Positions 30,111-64,000 of a stretch of DNA of 64,000 bases are shown here, piece by piece. Position 1 is the first letter of the stretch. Each line of letters starts with the position of its first letter. The position numbers were made by a program, and so were the translations under genes. The DNA lies in contig NC_135223.1 of NCBI RefSeq assembly GCF_052324685.1, positions 4,444,779-4,508,778 of the forward strand. Reading direction: 5' to 3'. Source of the DNA: Brachyhypopomus gauderio (taxonomy: Eukaryota; Chordata; Actinopteri; Gymnotiformes; Hypopomidae). The notes under the pieces were generated by a model. That model was given only the letters and a program-made list of their open reading frames with translations, was not told where the DNA came from and did no database searches.

Positions 30111-31856
30111 TGTGATAGAAATTCTGAAACCCTTAAATGGTGAGCACAATAAAAGTCAGAAGCAGTTGGGTTAGATAATAAAGTACAATGATTTATTTCA
30201 ACAAAGCATGGATTAACCCCTGAGATCTCCGTTACAAACACGCCAGGTGTCTGTCACAGAGAGAGCTAATTCCCCATTCCAAACTCTCATCTTTTATACG
30301 TTTAATCATCAATACACACGGTGTCCACGAGGTGAACATGAGGTGATCAACCAAATGTGATTGGACAATACATGAAATAATTAACACTGATTTGACAGAT
30401 GCATATGACGCATGTCCCCTCCACGCTCAGCATCCTCGTGATGTCATGACAGACTGAGTGTCGCCGTAGTCTCTTCCAAGTAGAGATTAGCCGTCTCCAG
30501 CGAGGTCAGTTTAGGAACACCAGAGGAACATCAGATTAGGCCTCAGCCGAGGCCAGAGAACACACGCACACACATCTGAGCCCTACTGATTAACACACGT
30601 ATATGTAAAAAGATCTAACACCTATATCTAATGTGTTTAATGTATACTAAGAAAGCCTGACATAAATGGAAATCACCAAATTTCCACCACATTTCCGTCC
30701 TTTTTGTCCTTTATGGACAAATTACATCGACTACAGACCACTCCAATACAGGCTTTCGATCGTAGTGTCACTTACAGAAAGTACATGGATGGTCAAACAA
30801 ACTACACCTGATTACAAACAGAATCAACATCAGGTGGTAGATTTGTGGCCTTGACATCCGTCCACATCGTGAGGTCCTCAGGTGTTGGCGCCGTGTCTGC
30901 AGCCTGCAAGACACAACTCCTCAGAAGTGACAGCATACAAGGCACACAGAAAACCTTCAACAACAATTGCCATTGTGCTCCATCACCGGATGAGCAAGAG
31001 CACAGGGTTCATGGTGGGTGATAGTTGACCATTCTTGACAGCTGTTGTGCTTGGAGTGCGGGCACGCCCTATCTGCACTTCCACCCACTCAGCTGTGGCG
31101 CCTGAACACCCTCCTTTCACTCTACAGAAGCTGGGATGCTTCAGGACTGCTCTTCGTCTGCTCAGGTTCAAGAACCTTCTTGCAATGGCTGGCGTGAATC
31201 CATGTTCCAGGTTGTGCTGTGGACCTTAGGTAACGCCTCTTTCACCGCCCTTCGAACTTGTGACAAGAGAGAGGACAGGTTTGCACAATAATTCAACATG
31301 GCATCATTGCATCATTACTGTATTTGGCGGCCTGCCAAATAAGATCTCAAACGGACTCAGGCCCGTTCTCCCCCGGAGATCTCAGGGTTAATCCATGCCC
31401 CGTTAAAACAAATCACTGCACTCCCTTCTAGGATGTTCACACAGTATCTCACTGACCTCACCGTCAGTACGGCTACTATTACATGCACCCATTTTGCTGC
31501 TTCTGCGGAGAGAGACAACTACTCACCCACGCTCTCTCATACCACAAACACTCACACAGAGCGCGACCTTCACTCTCACTGGTTTTATGCGAACTGTGTG
31601 CTCGTCAACCCACAGTTACGTGCGGCCACCTGGTGCTCGACTCCCAGTCGAGGGTGAAACTCCCAATCACTCAGTTACCCTGTCTGGTAACCACCAATGG
31701 TGCCACCTGTATAACCCCCCCCCCCGGGTAAAGTTCGACCGCCAAACCTCTCGACTCTTGTCCAGTTAGATCCCCTGATCCTGACAGTTCCCTATGAACT
31801 GCGTCTGGCGTCGCCTGTGTATACACGCACCAGGAGGTCACCAAATTTCCACCACA
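30111..31856 (-). mobile_element. Endogenous retrovirus copy 2, internally deleted, nested in the Gmr1-like element
   Basis: 4-bp target duplication GGCT (30107-30110 and 31857-31860). The 3' LTR is 30111-30691, and TGTGGTGG also starts the outer end at 31856. The 5' LTR is mostly lost: 12-18 nt of LTR start join directly to leader sequence. The gag start (MGACNSSRTDGE) is followed by LTR-like sequence and then the 3' pol-flanking region shared with copy 1. No coding capacity is left. Confidence 0.85.
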
Positions 31857-31860
31857 GGCT

Positions 31861-33030
31861 GTACGACAAACGACTGGAGCTACTCGATAAATTAGGACAA
31901 GCACTAATTTTGTGGCTGGTTTGGTTACAGTTAAAGCACCGTAGTGTTTTATCTGCGGGGCGTCTATCGCTAGCTGCTCTCACATTAATCGCATTCGAGC
32001 GCCCGTGTGTAGGTGGTCTGCTATATTGTGGCATCGGAATACTACCCCGTCCCCCAGCAAACATACCAAACTCGTTGTGCTGACGCGGTTTGTTGACTTC
32101 GTCAAAGCGGAAGTTGCCTTCTGTCTGTCTCGCTGCCACGAATGCCTCTGACATCTCTACCGCTTGGAGAGTTGACCCGGGACTACGCTCAATAATCCAC
32201 CTCCTGAGCTCTGGCTTGACCATGCGCAGGTACTGTTCCAGCATGATCGCGTCGCCAATCTCTTCCTTAGTCTTCTCCTGTGGCGTCATCCACTTCTCGT
32301 AGAGACCTTTCAGCCTAGTGTAGAGCTCCCGTGGTGTCTCTGCCTCGAGTATGTCGTTCATCCGGAACCTCTGGCGGTAAGTGTCTTTGTTTATTTTGTA
32401 TTTTCGCAGGATAACGTCTTTTACTTTGTGGTAGTCACCGATGTCCGTACCATCCATAGCTACGTAAGCCGCCCTGGCTTTTCCTTCCAGAAGCGGGGCC
32501 AGATGTAGCGCCCAAATTCCACTTGGCCAGTTTGCCGTTTGCGCTATGCGTTCGAACATTGTGAGGAAGTGTTCGATGTCATCTGACTCTTTTAGCGTTG
32601 GCAGTCTTGGTGTTGGCCACACTGTGTGTGATGAAACTTGCGATGTAGATTGCCGTGTTTCACTTTCATTTGCTTGGTCTGCACTCTCTGCTTGAGTGCG
32701 TCGTATAATCCGAGAATGAGCGAAGTCCGTTGTTTCTTCACTCTAGTCTTGTTCGCGTCTTCCCGCAGCCCGGCCCTTGTGGACTTCTTCCTGCAGTAAA
32801 CCGAACTGGTGCTGCATTGAGCACCATCTTTGCTCCTGTTTTGCTACTTCTTTTTGGAAATAGTCTTCCCTTCCTTTTTGCTCCTTCATAAAGCTCTGGA
32901 GCATTGCACACAGCTGTTCTACATCTGCGGGTGGGTCGCCAGACGCAGCTTCGGTGCTAGAGATTAGAAGCGGGTCATCTTCTCTTTGCAGCTGTTGACT
33001 CGTTGCTGGTGGAACTCTTTTTGGCGGCAT
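31861..33030 (-). pseudogene. Gmr1-like Gag with SCAN-like domain
   Basis: Starts MPPKRVPPATSQQ at 33030. An in-frame TAG at 32743-32745 interrupts it, and the same frame then continues. Capsid N-terminal-like part: FERIAQTANWP..WALHLAPLLEGKA. SCAN-like part: YRQRFR..ELYTRLKGLYEKWM..EQYLRMVKPELRRWI. Zinc knuckle: CFNCNQTSHKISAC. Vertebrate SCAN domains are known to descend from Gmr1-like Gag. The 3' end is split by ERV copy 2. Confidence 0.8.
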
Positions 33031-39832: not shown

Positions 39833-39991
39833 GACAGATTACAGTCTGATTATTGTATAACTACAAAGTGCTATATGATCTGATCCTATATAACCTAATT
39901 AACTGAAAACATCCACAAAGAGTACGGTTACAAGGGCTGTTTATAATGTGACCGGACTGTGTATATTATTTTAATCTTTTAAAAATATAAT

Positions 39992-41630
39992 TTGTGTATG
40001 TTTTCTCTTTGTTTTTGCCCAATCCAGAAGCTAACACCAATTGAAGAGCTGTTCCTCTTTCTGATGTACTTGTCGGTTGGCCTAAAACAGAGGGATCTTG
40101 GGCACAGATTTTTTATTCACCGCACCACTGTGAGCCGGATCATCATTACGTGGGCCAACTTCTTTACACCCTTTACAGGCCTTTACACCCTGCTGGGATC
40201 CATGTGTATCTGGATGCCACCCGAAGTCATCAAGGCTCACCTGCCCAAGGAGTTCTCAAGGTACCCAGACACACAGTTAGTGATTGACTGCACAGAGCTT
40301 CACTGCCAGACTCCATCATCATTACTGCTGCAAAGTGAAGTATTTTCAACATACAAGTCCCACTGCACTTTCAAAGGTATGTTGGGGATGGCACCACATA
40401 GAGCTGTGACATTTGTATCAGCACTTTACCAGGGGTCTCTCAGTGACGAGGAAATCTTCAGGCAGTCAGGCATCACATCTCTACTGACACCTGACATGGC
40501 CATTATGGTAGACAAGGGATTCCTTGTTGATGACCTGGTTCCTTGTAAAGTAGCGGCGTCCTTCATAGGAAAGACAAAAGCCCTGATTACTGGAGAAACC
40601 GCCCAAAATGCTCCCACTGGTCAGTGGCCGTGCTCAGTGTGCAATACTGGTGTTGGCAGCAACTCGATTCTATGCCATCATTGTAAAAAATGGTGTCATA
40701 AAAAGTGCTCGAAGATAACTGGTGCATTGTCTTCAATAGCCGCAGCAAACTTTGTTTGCCCAACTTGTCAGAATCCTAACCAGCCTGTAAAGCAAACACA
40801 ACTATTGGACAAGCTAGGGATTGAACATGTAACGACATTTCAATACCTGGGGGACATGATTAATACTGCCGGAACTGCTGATGCGGCAGTTCGTACTCGC
40901 ATTCGAGCCGCTTGGAGCAAATGGAGACCCCTTGCTTCTATATTCACTCTACGCGATATTCCTTTACAGCTGTGAACAAAACTGTACAGCTCAGTGATGA
41001 GGCCTGTATTGCTGTATGGTGCAGAAACATGGCCCATGACCAAAAGACTTGAACAGCAACTACACAGAACTGACATGAAAATGCTGCGATGGTTACAACG
41101 TGTAAACCTTGCTGATCACATTGAGTCCACTGAGATACTACATCGTAGTGGGCTAGGTGGAATAAGTGAAGCACTGCAAAAGCATCGGTTGCGCTGGTTT
41201 GGTCATGTAAAACGCAGTGAAAATACTGCAATAAAAACCATTATGAACCTAGAAGTTGACGGGAAACGACCAAAAGGACGCCCAAGGACAACATGGTTGA
41301 CAACTATTTGAGGAGACCTGAAAACTACTGGGCTAAAGGAAGCTGATGCTTTGGATAGAGTGAGCTGGCGACATAAACTACGCGTCCAACCTCCGCTAGG
41401 GGACAACGGACGTTAAAACGACGATGAAAGTACACAGGCCTGCTTTCCTGCACAAGAGAACACAGATGCTGGAAGATGATGTGAGAGAGACCCAGCATAT
41501 TGCATGTCTAAGGGTACATGTAGAGAGGATGATTAGACGAATTAAAGAAAACAAACTATTTGACACTGTAATACCACTCTCCATCACAGGAAGTATCAAT
41601 CAAATTGTTTACTGTGGCATGTCTTCTCTC
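39992..41630 (+). pseudogene. DDE transposase (DDE_Tnp_4 type), right-arm copy
   Basis: Frame from 39992: helix-turn-helix region (LTPIEELFLFLMYL..RDLGHRFFIHRTTVSRI), then the catalytic domain with VIDCTE, TFKGMLGMAPHRAVTFVSAL and MVDKGFLVDDL. The frame is interrupted by a LINE at 40553 and resumes at 41430 with RPAFLHKRTQM and the Glu helix RVHVERMIRRIKE. One extra T near 41610 shifts the frame after NQIV. It would have moved the transposon by DDE cleavage; it is dead as read. The fold is that of the HARBI1-related DDE_Tnp_4 family; a more exact class (IS4EU-like) is a guess. Confidence 0.8.
40553..41429 (+). mobile_element. 5'-truncated LINE inside the transposase
   Basis: Flanked by AAAGT on both sides. 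The frame carries a Cys/His motif (CSVCNTGVGS..CHHCKKWCHKKC), then the end of a reverse transcriptase (RPVLLYGAETWPMTKR, HRLRWFGHVKRS, RPKGRPRTTW). One stop near 40973 breaks it. RTE-like by motif. Confidence 0.8.
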
Positions 41631-56446: not shown

Positions 56447-57927
56447 AGGAGATGAGACAGTTTACAGACAGGAGATCCTGAAATTGGCAGATTGGTGCTC
56501 AGAAAATAATTTATCTCTGAACACAAAGAGACCAAAGAGATAATCGTCGACTTCAGGAAACACAGCACGAACCTAGACCCTTTATACATCAACCTAGCCC
56601 CTTTATACATCAACCTAGCCCCTTTATACATTAACCTAGCCCCTTTATACATCAACCTAGCCCCTTTATACATTAACCTAGCCCCTTTATACATCAACCT
56701 AGCCCCTTTATACATCAACCTAGCCCCTTTATACATTAACCTAGCCCCTTTATACATCAACCTAGCCCCTTTATACATTAACCTAGCCCCTTTATACATC
56801 AACCTAGCCCCTTTATACATTAACCTAGCCCCTTTATACATCAACCTAGCCCCTTTATACATCAACCTAGCCCCTTTATACATTAACCTAGCCCCTTTAT
56901 ACATCAACCTAGCCCCTTTATACATTAACCTAGCCCCTTTATACATCAACCTAGCCCCTTTATACATTAACCTAGCCCCTTTATACATCAACCTAGCCCC
57001 TTTATACATCAACCTAGCCCCTTTATACATTAACCTAGCCCCTTTATACATCAACCTAGCCCCTTTATACATTAACCTAGCCCCTTTATACATCAACCTA
57101 GCCCCTTTATACATTAACCTAGCCCCTTTATACATCAACCTAGCCCCTTTATACATCAACCTAGCCCCTTTATACATCAACCTAGCCCCTTTATACATTA
57201 ACCTAGCCCCTTTATACATCAACCTAGCCCCTTTATACATTAACCTAGCCCCTTTATACATCAACCTAGCCCCTTTATACATCAACCTAGCCCCTTTATA
57301 CATTAACCTAGCCCCTTTATACATCAACCTAGCCCCTTTATACATTAACCTAGCCCCTTTATACATCAACCTAGCCCCTTTATACATTAACCTAGCCCCT
57401 TTATACATCAACCTAGCCCCTTTATACATTAACGGTGAGTATGTGGAGGGTCCACACTTTCCGGTTCCTTGGTGTCCTTATCTCTGCCAACCTAGACTGG
57501 AAACACCACAGCAGTCATCAAAAAGGCTCAGCAGAGGCTACACTTTCTGAGAGTCCTCAGAAAACACAAGCTGGACTCCAACCTACTGCTGGTGTTCTAC
57601 CGCGCCTTCATCGAGAGCCTGCTGACGTACTGCGTCACAGTGTGGTATGGCAGCTGCACCATGGCAGACAGAGAGAGACTCCAGAAAGTAGTTAAAACAG
57701 CACAGAAAATAATTGGCTGCCCTCTTCCATCCCTGATGGACATTTATACCTCACGCTGCCTCAAAAAAGCTAAAAACATAATGGAGGACAGCATCCACCC
57801 TGGCTTTGATCCGTTTGACTTGTTGCCCTCAGGGAAGAGCTACAGGTGCATCAGAACAAGGACAAACCGATTCAAGAACAGTTTCTTCCCCAAAGCAATC
57901 ACCACACTGAACTCACACATGCACTGA
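56447..57927 (+). pseudogene. LINE reverse-transcriptase fragment with expanded coding repeat
   Basis: Reads ILKLADWCSENNLSLN and VDFRKHSTNLDPLYI before the minisatellite, then TFRFLGVLISANLDW (frame-shifted soon after) and FYRAFIESLLTYCVTVWYGS, CPLPSLMDIYTSRCL and LLPSGKSYRCI. These are the palm-to-C-terminal parts of a fish Rex/L2-like non-LTR RT. The 3' end is AT-rich (57930-58060). Confidence 0.8.
56577..57432 (+). repeat. 21-bp minisatellite, about 40 copies, in LINE coding sequence
   Basis: Unit CCCCTTTATACATYAACCTAG. The only frequent variant is C/T (ATCA or ATTA), largely alternating. On the plus strand each unit is 7 codons reading NLAPLYI. The minus strand gives a long MYKGARL frame that is a by-product. 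Confidence 0.97.
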
Positions 57928-58204: not shown

Positions 58205-58747
58205 TGTTGGGAATTTTCTTCTCCGACCCAGACGGGCCCCAACACCGCCCCGATGAACCGACTGGTTTTTGACTGAGTGGTCCAAGCAAAGTCTTGACAA
58301 CAAAAGTTCTTTTAAAATGATTTATATAGAATATTAATGAATGCAATATAATAGAAGTATTCGTGGTACAAACTCTTCAGTGCACTGGTGCTAGTTGCCT
58401 AGGAATCTACCTAACCCAAGTGGATCTCAGCAGTGTCCAAGCGAAAAGCCTCTCGTGCTGGGCGATGTCCTTTCTTTTCATACTCTCTGTCCATAAGTTT
58501 CGATTTGTTAAGTTTCGATAACTCCCCAATCCTGGCTGCTCTCCATGGAAAATCACCTGCTCCTCTTCTCCCAGCCTGTGTGCCTGGTTATCTAAAAACT
58601 GCTTGCTACACATCCTGCACTGAATAGGCCCCTTCTGTTCTCCTCAAGGCCACTGAGGCCTCCTTACTCCTGCTTTCCCACAGTCTTCCTGAAAAACACT
58701 AAATTGACACATCAAGTTATTAGCCTTTAATTTTCTTTTTTCCAACA
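58205..58747 (-). repeat. 3' LTR of ERV 3
   Basis: 543 bp with inverted ends TGTTGG / CCAACA. A TATA-like CTATATAAATC lies about 58325. Confidence 0.8.
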
Positions 58748-59225: not shown

Positions 59226-61460
59226 TCACACAGAATCGTCTTCTTCAGATGATATGTCATCATCATCCTCCACCATCAGTGGCATGGTGTATGGTGGTGG
59301 GTTCTTTGCATCCCCCTTCTCAATCGCGGCTGTGATCAACCTTTGGGTGAGAGATCTGATACATGGTATACAACAACATCCACAAATAACAACAATTGCA
59401 ATAAACACTGCTACTGACATAAACAAGGACATAATTAGTGCCTTCCATTTCCCAAACACCTTCGTGAACCACTCCTCCATGGGGTTACTGATACCTGAGG
59501 CCTCCTGCATCTCCTTAGATAAAGCCTTCAGTCCGTCCAGAGCTCTGGTCACCGACCCGTCCGGTGCGGTGTTATTGGGAATGAAGGTACAACAGTTGTC
59601 GCCAAACATGAAACATACACCCCCTTTTTCCGCCAGGAGCATATCTAGAGCCATTCTGTTTTGTACGGCCATCAATGAGGTAGCTCTCAGTTGTTCGCTC
59701 AGCCCCTCTATTGCGTCTCTCGTTAGGTTGGTTAATCTCAGCACATTGTAATGGACAAAGTTGATCCTATTTACATTCTTGTTCGGTGTTACTGGAAACA
59801 AGGCTGATATAATTGGAATGTTCTCAAAGCCCGTAGCTATTTGATCAACTAGCTTGTATTCATTGGGAACCCCCCGAGGCACTCCTATGGAGTCAATGTA
59901 TGTTGGTGACCCTATGGACAAATCAAAGGCATCACGCTTCTTTCTCCCTTGGGCTGTAGCAGGCTGCGGTGTGATTTCCCTCAGCCCTATCATTGTTATT
60001 GGTGTGATTAGTCTAACCATAGCACAGATTCCTTTAGCTTTTCCTGGTATTAATGCCAACAGAGTGTGTCCTCCGCAGTACCACCAGATCCCTGCCCGGG
60101 CTACTCTCCCTATCCCCGGGACCTTCGTTGTGGCGTTACACCAATCTGGTTCAATTTCTCCCACACTCATGATTGCGTCTTTCTCGGTCAAGTTAAAACA
60201 TTGGTACTGTCCTTTAAGTTTTACTGGCACGAAAGGAGCGTTACCTCCTTCCAAATTTTTGACGTACGGAAAAATACTGTCCAGGCTGGAACAATTTGAG
60301 GTCGCAATACTTTTCACCTTAGTTAAATTCAACATACACTGATATCCTACTGGATCTGTTTCAGGATTCAGTGGGGCTGGTGAGGTCATTAATGCGGGTC
60401 GGGCCGCTGCACAGGCCACACAACCTTCTAACCCATTTTCTCTACTGTTTTGTTCTAGCCATGACAACCACAAATTCGAGCCGCTGTAACCGGTTGCTAA
60501 TTCTATTAACTGCTGGGACGATAATTTAGTGAAATCTGTGGTTAGAGTGAACTTGTCTGCTGAATCCTCCATCTTCTCTATTTCTGCCTCAGGTTTTGCT
60601 GGGCTGAGTGGCTTGGGTTTGGCTAAATAGCTGAGTTTAATTATTCCCCATATGTCACGTCCTGATTGCTCCACCCCCAGGGTGAAGTACAACGGTCTGT
60701 TATTACCCCATATCTGCCCATTCCATTTGACAGAAAAAGTTACTGGATTTTGGGACACGTGATAGTCTCGCTGAAACGACACATCGACCCACCATTTGCT
60801 CAAAGAGGTCGTGGACGGGTTACCTTTCTTATCTCCTAATGTCGGTTTCCATCTCCCCGAGTACTTTATCACTGACCCCCAACCAGGACACCAGTCTGCA
60901 CTATAGAAACTCCCCCTTCCATGACAGCCCGCATTAACTTGATTGGTCCAACATATGTACAAATCACATCCTCTGTATGAGGCATTGGCTCCCCCGCAGT
61001 CCACTACCTCACATAAGTCAAAAGTCCAGCTCGAGGCTGTACCATCTCTATAACTCAATTCCACACCTCCGTATGTCCGTACACACCGGTCCTTGGACTG
61101 TCCTACTGGCCTGGTTCCAGCTCCTCTTGGTTTTCTTACTTTAAAGTCTATTTTCTCTGGTTTGGTCGCGTTTACTAGCGGGTTAGGGCTGTGGATCTCA
61201 CCGGGCCTCACCTCTTTGCAGGCAGTGTGATTGTCGTCCCACCGACACAAAGTTACGTTCACGTTATTGGGTTGTTTCTGATTTCCTACACTAAATATCA
61301 CCACCGCTCCTATTATCACCGCGGCTAGAAATGTTCCCCCCCATAGCCAAGTCCATGTTCTCAAAGTTAATCTCCCTACTCTAACATATTGTTGGTACTG
61401 AGCCTCATCTGGACGTCCGACACGTCCCGACAACATGTCTCTTATTTCCCACAGTTCCAT
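59226..61460 (-). CDS. env: ERV 3 envelope glycoprotein
   Basis: Intact 744-codon frame whose ATG follows the pol stop by one base. Residues 1-35 are cytosolic-like, then a hydrophobic leader at about 37-57. SU contains many Cys, several N-glycosylation sequons and a CVAC (CXXC) at 347-350. A furin-type site RKKR lies at 506-509. The TM subunit has CX6CC at C616-C624 and a membrane anchor at about 674-692, followed by a Cys cluster (CGCCCIPC). The tail carries PPPY (721-724) and an acidic end. CXXC plus CX6CC implies a disulphide-linked SU-TM pair of gamma/epsilon type. No strongly hydrophobic fusion peptide directly follows the furin site. No stops or frameshifts. Confidence 0.93.
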   Translation of the reverse strand: MELWEIRDMLSGRVGRPDEAQYQQYVRVGRLTLRTWTWLWGGTFLAAVIIGAVVIFSVGNQKQPNNVNVTLCRWDDNHTACKEVRPGEIHSPNPLVNATKPEKIDFKVRKPRGAGTRPVGQSKDRCVRTYGGVELSYRDGTASSWTFDLCEVVDCGGANASYRGCDLYICWTNQVNAGCHGRGSFYSADWCPGWGSVIKYSGRWKPTLGDKKGNPSTTSLSKWWVDVSFQRDYHVSQNPVTFSVKWNGQIWGNNRPLYFTLGVEQSGRDIWGIIKLSYLAKPKPLSPAKPEAEIEKMEDSADKFTLTTDFTKLSSQQLIELATGYSGSNLWLSWLEQNSRENGLEGCVACAAARPALMTSPAPLNPETDPVGYQCMLNLTKVKSIATSNCSSLDSIFPYVKNLEGGNAPFVPVKLKGQYQCFNLTEKDAIMSVGEIEPDWCNATTKVPGIGRVARAGIWWYCGGHTLLALIPGKAKGICAMVRLITPITMIGLREITPQPATAQGRKKRDAFDLSIGSPTYIDSIGVPRGVPNEYKLVDQIATGFENIPIISALFPVTPNKNVNRINFVHYNVLRLTNLTRDAIEGLSEQLRATSLMAVQNRMALDMLLAEKGGVCFMFGDNCCTFIPNNTAPDGSVTRALDGLKALSKEMQEASGISNPMEEWFTKVFGKWKALIMSLFMSVAVFIAIVVICGCCCIPCIRSLTQRLITAAIEKGDAKNPPPYTMPLMVEDDDDISSEEDDSV

Positions 61461-61461
61461 C

Positions 61462-64000
61462 CTAGGATGGAAGATGGTGCACCACCACCTTGGTACCGGT
61501 TGGTTTAAGTAAAGTTTTAATGATTGGTTTCACAGTCCTCCAGTCTAATCCGTCTAGTCCACAACCCAGCTTCGGTATGGCTAGAGTGTTAATGTTCAAT
61601 GATATTAACAATGTGGCCAGGTGTTGTATGCTTGAAATCAGATCTCCTAATTCTGGCTTCTCCCTGTAGTATCTTTTGGTCACTAAATGAAATATAATGT
61701 GTGTCTGTGTGGTTTGTGTGGCACACTTGCCTATGGGCACCTTGGCTATACCTGTAGTGCCAAACGCTTGTCTGATCTGCAGAGCCACTCCAGCTCCCAG
61801 GTTCAGGTCCGCGCTCACACAGTGTGCTATAGCCTCACAGTCAGTCTCCAACAGGTCTCCTTCACCTTCCTCCCACCAGTCCTCGGCTGTGATGTATTCT
61901 CTGTAAAAAGCTACACTGGGGTCGGTACTCACCACTAACTCCTTCCCTGGGGCTTCTCCTGTCTCCTCCAGGTGTGTCTTGATCTCTCCTGTGGTTCTTG
62001 TTGGTTCTTTTGCTGCAACACAGTGTGAAATGTGGTACCAAGTCTTACCTTTGTCTTTCCTCACTTTCACTGAGTGCTCGTTGGCACCTTCGACCTCCCA
62101 CGGGCCTGTCCACCGTGGCTCGTTCCACTTCCTCTTGTGCACCTTGATCCTTACCCAATCCCCTGGCTTCACCTTCACCTTGGGTGATTCCAGGTCTTCT
62201 TCTCCTTTTTCCTGTTGAACAGACTTATTGATTTCACAAAGCAATTTGGTTAATTCTCTCATGTACTCTGACATCTCCTGTTCCTGGATTTCCAAAGCTG
62301 GTCCCTCAATCCTCGGTCGAGGGCACCCTGGCATGGGTCGTCCTGTCATGAGCTGGTGTGGTGAGAGATTGTATTCTCCCGTGGGGGTTGCTCTCATGGA
62401 CATCAACACTAGTGGCAGCGCCTGAACCCAGTCCATGTCTCCTGCTGCGCACACCTTGGCCAGTTTAGTCTTAATGGTCTGGTTGGCTCTTTCCACCAAC
62501 CCCTGTGACTGTGGGTGGTAGACAGTGCCAAACTTGTGGGTTAGGCCCAGCTTTTGTTCTACTTCTGCCAAGTGTTTGTTATCAAAGTGGGACCCATTGT
62601 CACTCCTAATCACTTTTGGTAGGCCGTACCTGGGAATCAACTCATTTTGCAACCATTTTATGACTGATTTTGAATCTTCCTTTTTGGTGGGTATAGCTTC
62701 TACCCACTTGGTGAATCTGTCTACCATGACCAGCAGGTACCTGTACCCCCTTACCCTGTTGTCTGGCCCCATGTCTGTGTAATCGATCACAATCTCCTCA
62801 AATGGCCCCGTGGGCACTGGGTATCCTCCAATTCTCACCCGGTATGGTTTCTTCACATTGTATGACTGACAGATATCGCATTCGCTCACGTATTGCTTCA
62901 CGTGGTCTCTGAGGTATGGATGCCACCATAAACATTCTAATTTGGTCACCATGGCCGACACTCCGGAGTGAGTAGGCCCATGTGCTTCGCATAGTATCAA
63001 TTTCATCTTCTCTAAGGGCAAAACTACTCTCCCTTCTGGACTCCTCCAGAGTCCTTTAGTGACTGTGGCTCCCCGGTCTATCCACAATTGCTTCTCATAG
63101 ACCGTGGCTTGTTCTTGGATCTGTGCCAGGTGGCTCTCCGTCAACTCAGGCATGTTATGAGTTTCCAGCAACAACAAGCTCTGTGGGTTGTACCCTCCAG
63201 CAGCTTTGGCTGCTCTGTCAGCAGCTTCATTACCTCTAGAAACAAAACTGTCATTACCCTGATGTCCTCTTACCTTTATCACAGCCACTTCTTTGGGTAA
63301 CATGATAGCTTCACTCAACTCATGTACTGCTCTCAAATGTTTGATTGGCTGTCCTGTGGCGTTAGTGTACCCATTATCCATCCACCTGACTAGTTCATGG
63401 TGGATGACCCCGTGCACGTATGCTGAATCTGTGTAAATGTTCACAATCTGACCTGACGCGTGTTCCAGTGCTCTAGTGAGTGCGACCATTTCTGCCAGCT
63501 GAGCTGAAGCTGGTTGTGGAACCACTCCTGATTCCACCTCCTCCCACTCTTCCCCACATGCTTGTACCACAGCGTAAGAGGCCTTCAGTTCGTTACCTTG
63601 TCTCCAACAACTCCCATCTGAACAGAGTTCCCATGCTCCTGGTTTAGTAATTCTGACCTTGTGCAGTTCTGGTCTGAGCTGAATGTATCTTTCTGTGGCG
63701 TCAGCGCAGTCATGTGGTGTCGCATCTTCGGCTACTTCAATGTTATCAGTCAGATTCACAGATTCACAAGTTGTACGTGCAGTGTTGTACGTGATGTGTG
63801 GCTGTGTGAGTATGGCTTTTATCTTGTTCTGTCGTGCTCTTGACAAAGAAAAGGCTTGTGAGTTTATGAACGCCATTACTCCGTGATTGGTGCTGACTAT
63901 TAGTGGGTGACACATTACCAAGTGTGCTGTCTTCTCTATCGCTGTGGTGAGTCCTGCCATGTATGTTGTGCATGGTCCTGTTCCTATCACTGGTTGATCT
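61462..64000 (-). CDS. pol: ERV 3 Pol, C-terminal part: RNase H, integrase, macro domain
   Basis: Partial: the frame enters from beyond the window. Numbering from the first Met visible at 63990, RNase H has D125, E167, D188, H243 and D258. The integrase zinc finger is H337, H341, C371, C374. The DDE core is D403, D464, E500 with exactly 35 residues between the last two. A C-terminal integrase segment with WTGPWEV lies near 627-633. After a linker (about 655-705) comes a 130-residue macro domain (711-842): GDLLETDCEAIAHCVS, LGAGVA, and LGCGLDGLDW near the end. Its closest resemblance is cellular OARD1/TARG1. K772 and D813 sit at that family's catalytic spacing. The frame has no stop, so both enzyme parts look usable. 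RT lies outside the window. Confidence 0.93.
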   Translation of the reverse strand, partial: DQPVIGTGPCTTYMAGLTTAIEKTAHLVMCHPLIVSTNHGVMAFINSQAFSLSRARQNKIKAILTQPHITYNTARTTCESVNLTDNIEVAEDATPHDCADATERYIQLRPELHKVRITKPGAWELCSDGSCWRQGNELKASYAVVQACGEEWEEVESGVVPQPASAQLAEMVALTRALEHASGQIVNIYTDSAYVHGVIHHELVRWMDNGYTNATGQPIKHLRAVHELSEAIMLPKEVAVIKVRGHQGNDSFVSRGNEAADRAAKAAGGYNPQSLLLLETHNMPELTESHLAQIQEQATVYEKQLWIDRGATVTKGLWRSPEGRVVLPLEKMKLILCEAHGPTHSGVSAMVTKLECLWWHPYLRDHVKQYVSECDICQSYNVKKPYRVRIGGYPVPTGPFEEIVIDYTDMGPDNRVRGYRYLLVMVDRFTKWVEAIPTKKEDSKSVIKWLQNELIPRYGLPKVIRSDNGSHFDNKHLAEVEQKLGLTHKFGTVYHPQSQGLVERANQTIKTKLAKVCAAGDMDWVQALPLVLMSMRATPTGEYNLSPHQLMTGRPMPGCPRPRIEGPALEIQEQEMSEYMRELTKLLCEINKSVQQEKGEEDLESPKVKVKPGDWVRIKVHKRKWNEPRWTGPWEVEGANEHSVKVRKDKGKTWYHISHCVAAKEPTRTTGEIKTHLEETGEAPGKELVVSTDPSVAFYREYITAEDWWEEGEGDLLETDCEAIAHCVSADLNLGAGVALQIRQAFGTTGIAKVPIGKCATQTTQTHIIFHLVTKRYYREKPELGDLISSIQHLATLLISLNINTLAIPKLGCGLDGLDWRTVKPIIKTLLKPTGTKVVVHHLPS
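61465..61893 (-). other. Macro domain (OARD1/TARG1-like) in ERV Pol
   Basis: Residues 711-842 of the visible Pol. Seen: the ADP-ribose-loop motifs of macro domains (GAGVA after AHCVSADLN; the LGCGLD loop), VTKRYY with K772, and D813. Known: TARG1 removes ADP-ribose from proteins using a Lys and an Asp 41 residues apart. Here 813 minus 772 is also 41. Inferred: a hydrolase released from, or carried on, integrase that could counter ADP-ribosylation-based host defence. Confidence 0.85.

What the first reader, a model, noticed from the sequence alone, without database searches (positions are those of the whole stretch)
61465..61923. A retroviral pol frame that ends in a TARG1/OARD1-like macro domain
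The integrase frame of ERV 3 runs without a stop into about 130 residues with macro-domain landmarks (GDL..AHCVS, LGAGVA, LGCGLDGLDW). The TARG1 catalytic pair appears kept (K772 and D813, 41 apart as in human TARG1 K84/D125). Viral macro domains in coronaviruses and alphaviruses reverse host ADP-ribosylation. I know of no standard retrovirus that encodes one in pol, so this looks like host-gene capture. I cannot exclude that it has been noted in fish ERV catalogues.
Basis: partly seen in the sequence, partly recalled or inferred. Interest (0 to 1): 0.95.

Follow-up and report, generated by a model that had tools for sequence, protein, structure and literature searches.

The report
Retroviral integrase tailed by TARG1-like macrodomain
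A recently active endogenous retrovirus, probably of a fish, carries at the end of its integrase an intact-looking enzyme domain of a kind that in cells removes ADP-ribose tags from proteins and DNA, and beetle retrotransposons carry a similar domain in the same place.

Summary

The source is hardly this host's OARD1 (30% identity; trees weakly reject grouping). And macro-domain ORFs in fish epsilon-like retroviruses are already in print (Basta 2009, as cited by a 2016 review; Basta itself was not held).

Not met in my searches: beetle Ty3-like elements carry a TARG1-like domain at the same place, behind integrase. I favour a Pol-borne de-ADP-ribosylase acting on viral DNA ends or the integration site; evasion of antiviral PARPs is nearly as likely.

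The parts
61465..61929 (-). C-terminal part of pol: end of a linker plus TARG1/DarG-class macro domain (core about 61465-61881)
61930..63999 (-). upstream pol in the same open frame: RNase H, integrase zinc-binding domain, integrase core, MLV-like integrase C-terminus
   Evidence: Pfam PF00075, PF17921, PF00665 above cut-off; PF18697 at 24.7 bits, below its cut-off of 29.2
61462..61464 (-). pol stop codon; the first env ATG follows after one base, at 61460-61458
   Evidence: read from the sequence
59226..61460 (-). env, gamma-type coat protein
   Evidence: Pfam PF00429 TLV_coat 42.9 bits, cut-off 22.5
58205..58747 (-). 3' LTR, 543 bp, TG...CA ends; its partner lies outside the window at contig 4513162-4513703 (L111 1663-2204)
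   Evidence: blastn pair, 544 columns, 1 mismatch, 3 gap openings; ends and CTGG target duplication read

Best explanation
A retrovirus that looks SSSV/ZFERV-like (epsilon-related) carries a TARG1/DarG-class ADP-ribosylhydrolase domain as the last domain of Pol. SHOWN: the domain, its predicted fold, its kept catalytic residues, its presence through the family at a fixed position, purifying selection on changes shared between copies, and its absence from the four other ERV pol ends read in this genome. INFERRED: made as part of Gag-Pol, it is packaged and enters the next cell with integrase, as its tail or released by the viral protease. There it removes ADP-ribose that PARP1-3 place on nicked or exposed DNA ends and on Glu/Asp of nearby proteins, at the viral cDNA ends or at the unrepaired gaps of the integration site, so that integration or gap repair is not blocked. 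A similar domain behind the integrase of beetle Ty3-like elements points to a step shared by integrating elements.
Against: No activity was measured; packaging or cleavage of the domain is not shown. The sequence does not tell DNA from protein substrates. Most retroviruses do without such a domain (recalled). Singletons in the macro core are not significantly below neutral (p 0.20) and the linker is not depleted (p 0.15). The variant counts are not corrected for relatedness of the copies. A common clade of the retroviral and beetle domains is not rejected (AU p 0.14), which weakens the argument from convergence. The beetle-type domains score low with Pfam: PF01661 is listed for 1 of 120 hits, and P0001 reaches 20.4 bits against a cut-off of 22.
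Confidence: 0.42

Rival explanations
1. Evasion of innate immunity: the domain strips mono-ADP-ribose placed by interferon-induced PARPs on viral or host proteins, as alphavirus and coronavirus macro domains do.
Against: Its nearest class is TARG1/DarG rather than the alphavirus type (17-20% identity to alphavirus domains). It sits in Pol, which is made in small amounts (recalled). Ty3-like elements of beetles, animals without interferon (recalled), carry a similar domain behind integrase.
Confidence: 0.33
2. Reader, not eraser: the domain binds ADP-ribose and steers integrase to PARP-marked chromatin, as the chromodomain at the same place in chromoviruses steers integration.
For: Its position directly behind the integrase C-terminal domain; the chromodomain parallel is recalled.
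Against: A reader does not need the catalytic Lys and Asp, yet both are kept in 102 of 102 copies, and a pattern search found a Lys/Asp pair in 121 of 121 database proteins, 41 apart in 120 of them.
Confidence: 0.13
3. Recent capture of the host's own OARD1 transcript, on its way to becoming neutral cargo.
For: Same enzyme class; an intact-looking stretch of OARD1 is present in the host (four exons read).
Against: 30% identity to the host's OARD1 against 72% between host and human; AU p 0.022 and 0.032 against grouping; selection on shared variants.
Confidence: 0.05
4. Chance similarity or an assembly artefact in this copy.
For: None found.
Against: 122 matching rows in the genome, 50 of them 100% identical over residues 1-155; paired LTRs and a target duplication around this copy; Pfam, PDB and fold matches.
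Confidence: 0.01

Closest known systems
Fish epsilon-like ERVs with macro-domain ORFs (Basta et al. 2009, J Virol 83:10152; known here only through PMC4977317 and reference lists)
   Same: Fish retroviruses with a macro domain beside the usual genes
   Different: The passage of the review speaks of additional ORFs and names neither class nor place; here the domain is in frame with integrase. Whether Basta describes the same arrangement could not be checked.
Human TARG1/OARD1
   Different: 29% identity; a cellular protein on its own
DarG macrodomain (DNA ADP-ribosyl glycohydrolase, bacterial antitoxin)
   Different: About 30% identity; part of a bacterial toxin-antitoxin pair; far below the model's cut-off
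Ty3-like elements with macro domain and CCCH zinc finger, mostly filed under beetles (P0001, P0023, P0042, P0047 and relatives)
   Same: TARG1-like macro domain directly behind the integrase C-terminal domain, Lys/Asp kept
   Different: Ty3-type pol; integrase 29% and macro 35% identical between P0042 and the virus; a CCCH finger follows; the integrase core motif was found in 6 of 121 proteins
Alphavirus and coronavirus macro domains
   Same: Viral macro domains with ADP-ribosylhydrolase activity (literature)

Membership tests
TARG1/DarG-class macro domain | macro fold closest to TARG1/DarG | tested here: met
TARG1/DarG-class macro domain | catalytic Lys (TARG1 K84) and Asp (D125, recalled), 41 apart | tested here: met
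   sequence; Lys and Asp in 102 of 102 copies compared
TARG1/DarG-class macro domain | ADP-ribosylhydrolase activity | not testable with these tools
   needs a biochemical assay
DarG (NCBIfam NF048014) | whole-protein score above the curated cut-off | tested here: not met
   70.1 bits against 250
Vertebrate OARD1 gene family (orthology) | groups with vertebrate OARD1 | tested here: inconclusive
   AU test rejects grouping at p 0.022 (28 rows) and 0.032 (37 rows); long branches, 144 and 146 columns, only two vertebrate sequences
SSSV/ZFERV-like (epsilon-related) retrovirus | retroviral anatomy: LTRs, pol with integrase, gamma-type env | tested here: met
   gag was not examined
SSSV/ZFERV-like (epsilon-related) retrovirus | primer site for initiator tRNA-Met (recalled as an SSSV trait) | tested here: inconclusive
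   aaccatcctctgctacca stands beside the 5' LTR; the tRNA sequence and the SSSV trait are recalled
SSSV/ZFERV-like (epsilon-related) retrovirus | position in a reverse transcriptase tree | not tested
   no named fish retroviruses were at hand
Alphavirus/coronavirus macro domains | closest to these viral macro domains | tested here: inconclusive

The most novel reading that the evidence does not exclude
Integrating elements have more than once attached a TARG1-class DNA/protein de-ADP-ribosylase to the end of integrase (a vertebrate retrovirus and beetle Ty3-like elements), because ADP-ribosylation of cDNA ends or of the integration site by PARP1-3 is a general barrier to integration. A third element, P0002, carries one between RNase H and integrase.
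Probability: 0.3. Interest if true: 0.85.

Novelty: new variant of a known kind. Interest (0 to 1): 0.62.

Why it matters
If the enzyme acts at integration, it would show that ADP-ribosylation of DNA or of nearby proteins is a barrier that integrating elements must clear, an open question for retroviruses and retrotransposons alike. It offers a natural fusion of integrase and eraser with which to test this. If it acts against antiviral PARPs instead, it extends to retroviruses a strategy known from RNA viruses.

Tried and rejected
Assembly or copy-specific artefact: rejected. Chance similarity: rejected. Capture from this host's OARD1: disfavoured.

IMG/VR viral contigs: 7 stretches matched a pattern, none encoded a relative. 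INPHARED phages: 35 records with distant matches, all under 60% identity, 20 listed; three were used as tree rows, a fourth was fetched and not used. A Foldseek search of the PDB itself was not run because the machine was busy; one search is a second look at Foldseek's candidates.

Trees: P0020 and P0021 were dropped before both trees. The nearest row to the viral domain, P0003, has weak support (90/75, 84/64) and unknown origin, so no source is claimed. Holding beetle-type rows with vertebrate OARD1 is not rejected either (p 0.19).

Ten paper searches were answered. Going by their listings and by the passages read, none shows a macro domain fused to integrase in a retrovirus or a beetle retrotransposon; only open-licence papers are held and Basta 2009 is not. 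Passages only: PMC4977317, PMC8672886 (a zebrafish ERV survey; the search term macro occurs there only in a reference), PMC9967133 (reference list), PMC8501950. PMC10499221: passages, author summary, introduction. PMC11102865 and PMC5725667: abstract and outline.

Selection count: the comparison rests largely on 30 loci that came first because they were 100% identical in protein; only its divergent copies L031 and L033 are used. One search uses 102 of the 110 loci held then (those covering at least 90% of the last 930 nt of pol), from 122 rows. It counts distinct variant codons per position against the window's copy, leaving out insertions and gapped codons; they are not independent events.

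Full report
WHAT IS THERE. On the minus strand the pol frame 61462-63999 (845 aa, running off the window) is open. It holds RNase H and the integrase zinc-binding and core domains above their Pfam cut-offs and an MLV-like integrase C-terminus at 24.7 bits, below its cut-off of 29.2. Its last 155 residues match Pfam Macro at 31.2 bits, cut-off 22. The best PDB sequence match is human TARG1/OARD1 (E 7e-17), followed by bacterial relatives and, far weaker, alphavirus domains (E 0.15 and worse). The Lys of LVTK and the Asp of GCGLD stand 41 apart, as the aligned residues do in TARG1. K84 as TARG1's catalytic lysine is in passages of PMC8501950; D125 is recalled. The pol stop is followed after one base by the env ATG at 61460. 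Env matches the TLV_coat family. Gag was not examined.

THE PROVIRUS. The 3' LTR is 58205-58747. Its partner lies outside the window, at contig 4513162-4513703, with 1 mismatch and 3 gap openings over 544 columns. Both have TG...CA ends, and the flanks share CTGG. Beside the 5' LTR stands aaccatcctctgctacca, which I recall as the 3' end of initiator tRNA-Met and as an SSSV-like primer site. One substitution between LTRs means a young insertion, roughly under a million years at usual neutral rates (recalled; a single copy dated).

COPIES. An integrase search listed 150 of 151 matches and scored 150 of 3740 candidates. Of its 116 rows at 94% identity or more (some copies give two rows), 115 have a macro row, whole or truncated, within 1.5 kb downstream on the same strand, 102 at exactly 232 nt; the exception is a partial integrase match. 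In two of the copies read, L042 and L046, the domain breaks off into unrelated sequence. Of the 110 loci held, 102 cover at least 90% of the last 930 nt of pol: Lys, Asp and the Ser of HCVS are kept in 102 of 102, while one Gly of LGAGV varies in 4. Variants seen in two or more copies, which are mostly inherited through replication, number 13 amino-acid, 22 silent and 1 stop in the macro core, against 53, 32 and 4 among singletons (p 0.015). In the first 170 codons of the integrase stretch they number 10, 21, 1 against 46, 33, 4; in the next 80 codons 10, 13, 1 against 16, 9, 5; in the linker 8, 7, 0 against 16, 5, 1. Macro and integrase do not differ (p 0.80), and the shared macro variants are below neutral expectation (p 0.00014); the singletons (p 0.20) and the linker (p 0.15) are not. 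Against the window's copy the divergent L031 has dS 0.28 and dN 0.057 in the domain, L033 0.24 and 0.026. Segmental duplicates would add neutral changes to the shared class and so weaken this signal; no correction for relatedness was made.

WHEN AND WHENCE. The nearest other ERVs listed have integrases about 50-63% identical, many with pol frames of 1381 aa; further ones, about 38-43% identical, have frames up to 1489 aa. I read the pol end of four (L117, L120 at 55-56%; L118, L119 at 43%): by eye none has a macro domain, and one search lists no macro row there (4 of 4). So the domain was gained in, or kept only by, this lineage. The host's OARD1 lies at C21:1044669-1045467. It is 72% identical to human OARD1; the window's viral domain is 30% and L031's 35% identical to it. 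Trees of 28 and 37 rows place the viral domain apart from vertebrate OARD1; holding them together gives AU p 0.022 and 0.032. Only two vertebrate sequences were available and the branches are long, so an old capture followed by fast change is not excluded.

THE SAME TRICK IN BEETLES. The first protein search found two retroelement proteins with a TARG1-like domain (P0001, P0002). Of nine read in full, P0023, P0024, P0042, P0043, P0044 and P0047 show integrase core sequence, then an SH3-type C-terminus, then the macro domain, then a CCCH finger; P0028 and P0046 lack the integrase core, and P0022 is a protein of three macro domains. P0001 is of the first kind. Over 121 proteins (P0001, P0002 and 119 listed hits) a pattern search found a Lys/Asp pair in 121, with spacing 41 in 120; an integrase core motif upstream in only 6, an SH3 end in 112 and a CCCH finger in 111 (the integrase pattern misses variants such as P0047's). 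Many are thus fragments or annotation products of decayed copies. Pfam sees these domains poorly: PF01661 is listed for 1 of 120 hits and scores 20.4 bits in P0001, under the cut-off of 22, and 24.2 in P0002; but P0001's domain is 47% identical to the host's OARD1. Integrase is 29% and macro 35% identical between the virus and P0042. The eight beetle-type rows form one clade (99/96), apart from the viral one, but a common clade with the virus (p 0.14) or with vertebrate OARD1 (p 0.19) is not rejected. In P0002 the domain lies between RNase H and integrase. I found no paper on this (ten searches, listed under Tried and rejected).

MECHANISM. TARG1 reverses PARP3-made ADP-ribose on DNA ends (PMC5725667, abstract); telomeric DNA-ADP-ribose made by PARP1, forming at unligated Okazaki fragments, is removed by TARG1 (PMC11102865, abstract); TARG1 reverses thymidine-linked ADP-ribose on DNA, and K84A does not rescue (PMC8501950, passages). 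Retroviral cDNA ends and the gapped integration intermediate are the kind of DNA that activates PARP1-3 (general knowledge). A hydrolase carried in Pol would arrive with integrase before any viral gene is expressed. I therefore favour action at cDNA ends or the integration site (0.42), closely followed by evasion of antiviral PARPs (0.33); a pure reader role (0.13) fits the kept catalytic residues less well. None of the functional steps is shown.

NOVELTY. Macro-domain ORFs in fish epsilon-like retroviruses were reported by Basta et al. 2009 according to PMC4977317 (passage); Basta was not held, so whether the in-frame integrase fusion and the TARG1 class are in it is unknown.

Noticed in passing
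L034 3319-, L035 3048- (minus), and G000:C7:29254871: In three copies a length change near the end of the macro domain runs the pol-macro frame into the env frame, giving one open frame of 2077 aa. L034 and L035 were read; the third is known only from its row.
   Followed up: partly
window 56570-57433: Minisatellite of a 21-bp unit, 41 copies at 95% match, open on both strands, near the provirus.
   Followed up: no
window 39983-40975 (+): DDE_Tnp_4 transposase-like frame that also matches a PHD finger (27.7 bits, cut-off 24).
   Followed up: no
window 31792-32742 (-): Frame with a SCAN domain (73 bits), possibly of a Gag-like retroelement protein.
   Followed up: no
window 57496-57927 (+): Short frame matching ALKBH8_N (62.5 bits), perhaps the end of a LINE-like element (recalled).
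   Followed up: no
P0043: A Ty3 pol with macro domain is filed under the fungus Erysiphe pulchra and groups with Harmonia axyridis (99/96); perhaps insect contamination of that assembly.
   Followed up: no
P0022: A 484-aa database protein made of three TARG1-like macro domains in a row.
   Followed up: no
P0002 residues 347-446: Another retroelement pol carries a macro domain between RNase H and integrase rather than after it.
   Followed up: partly
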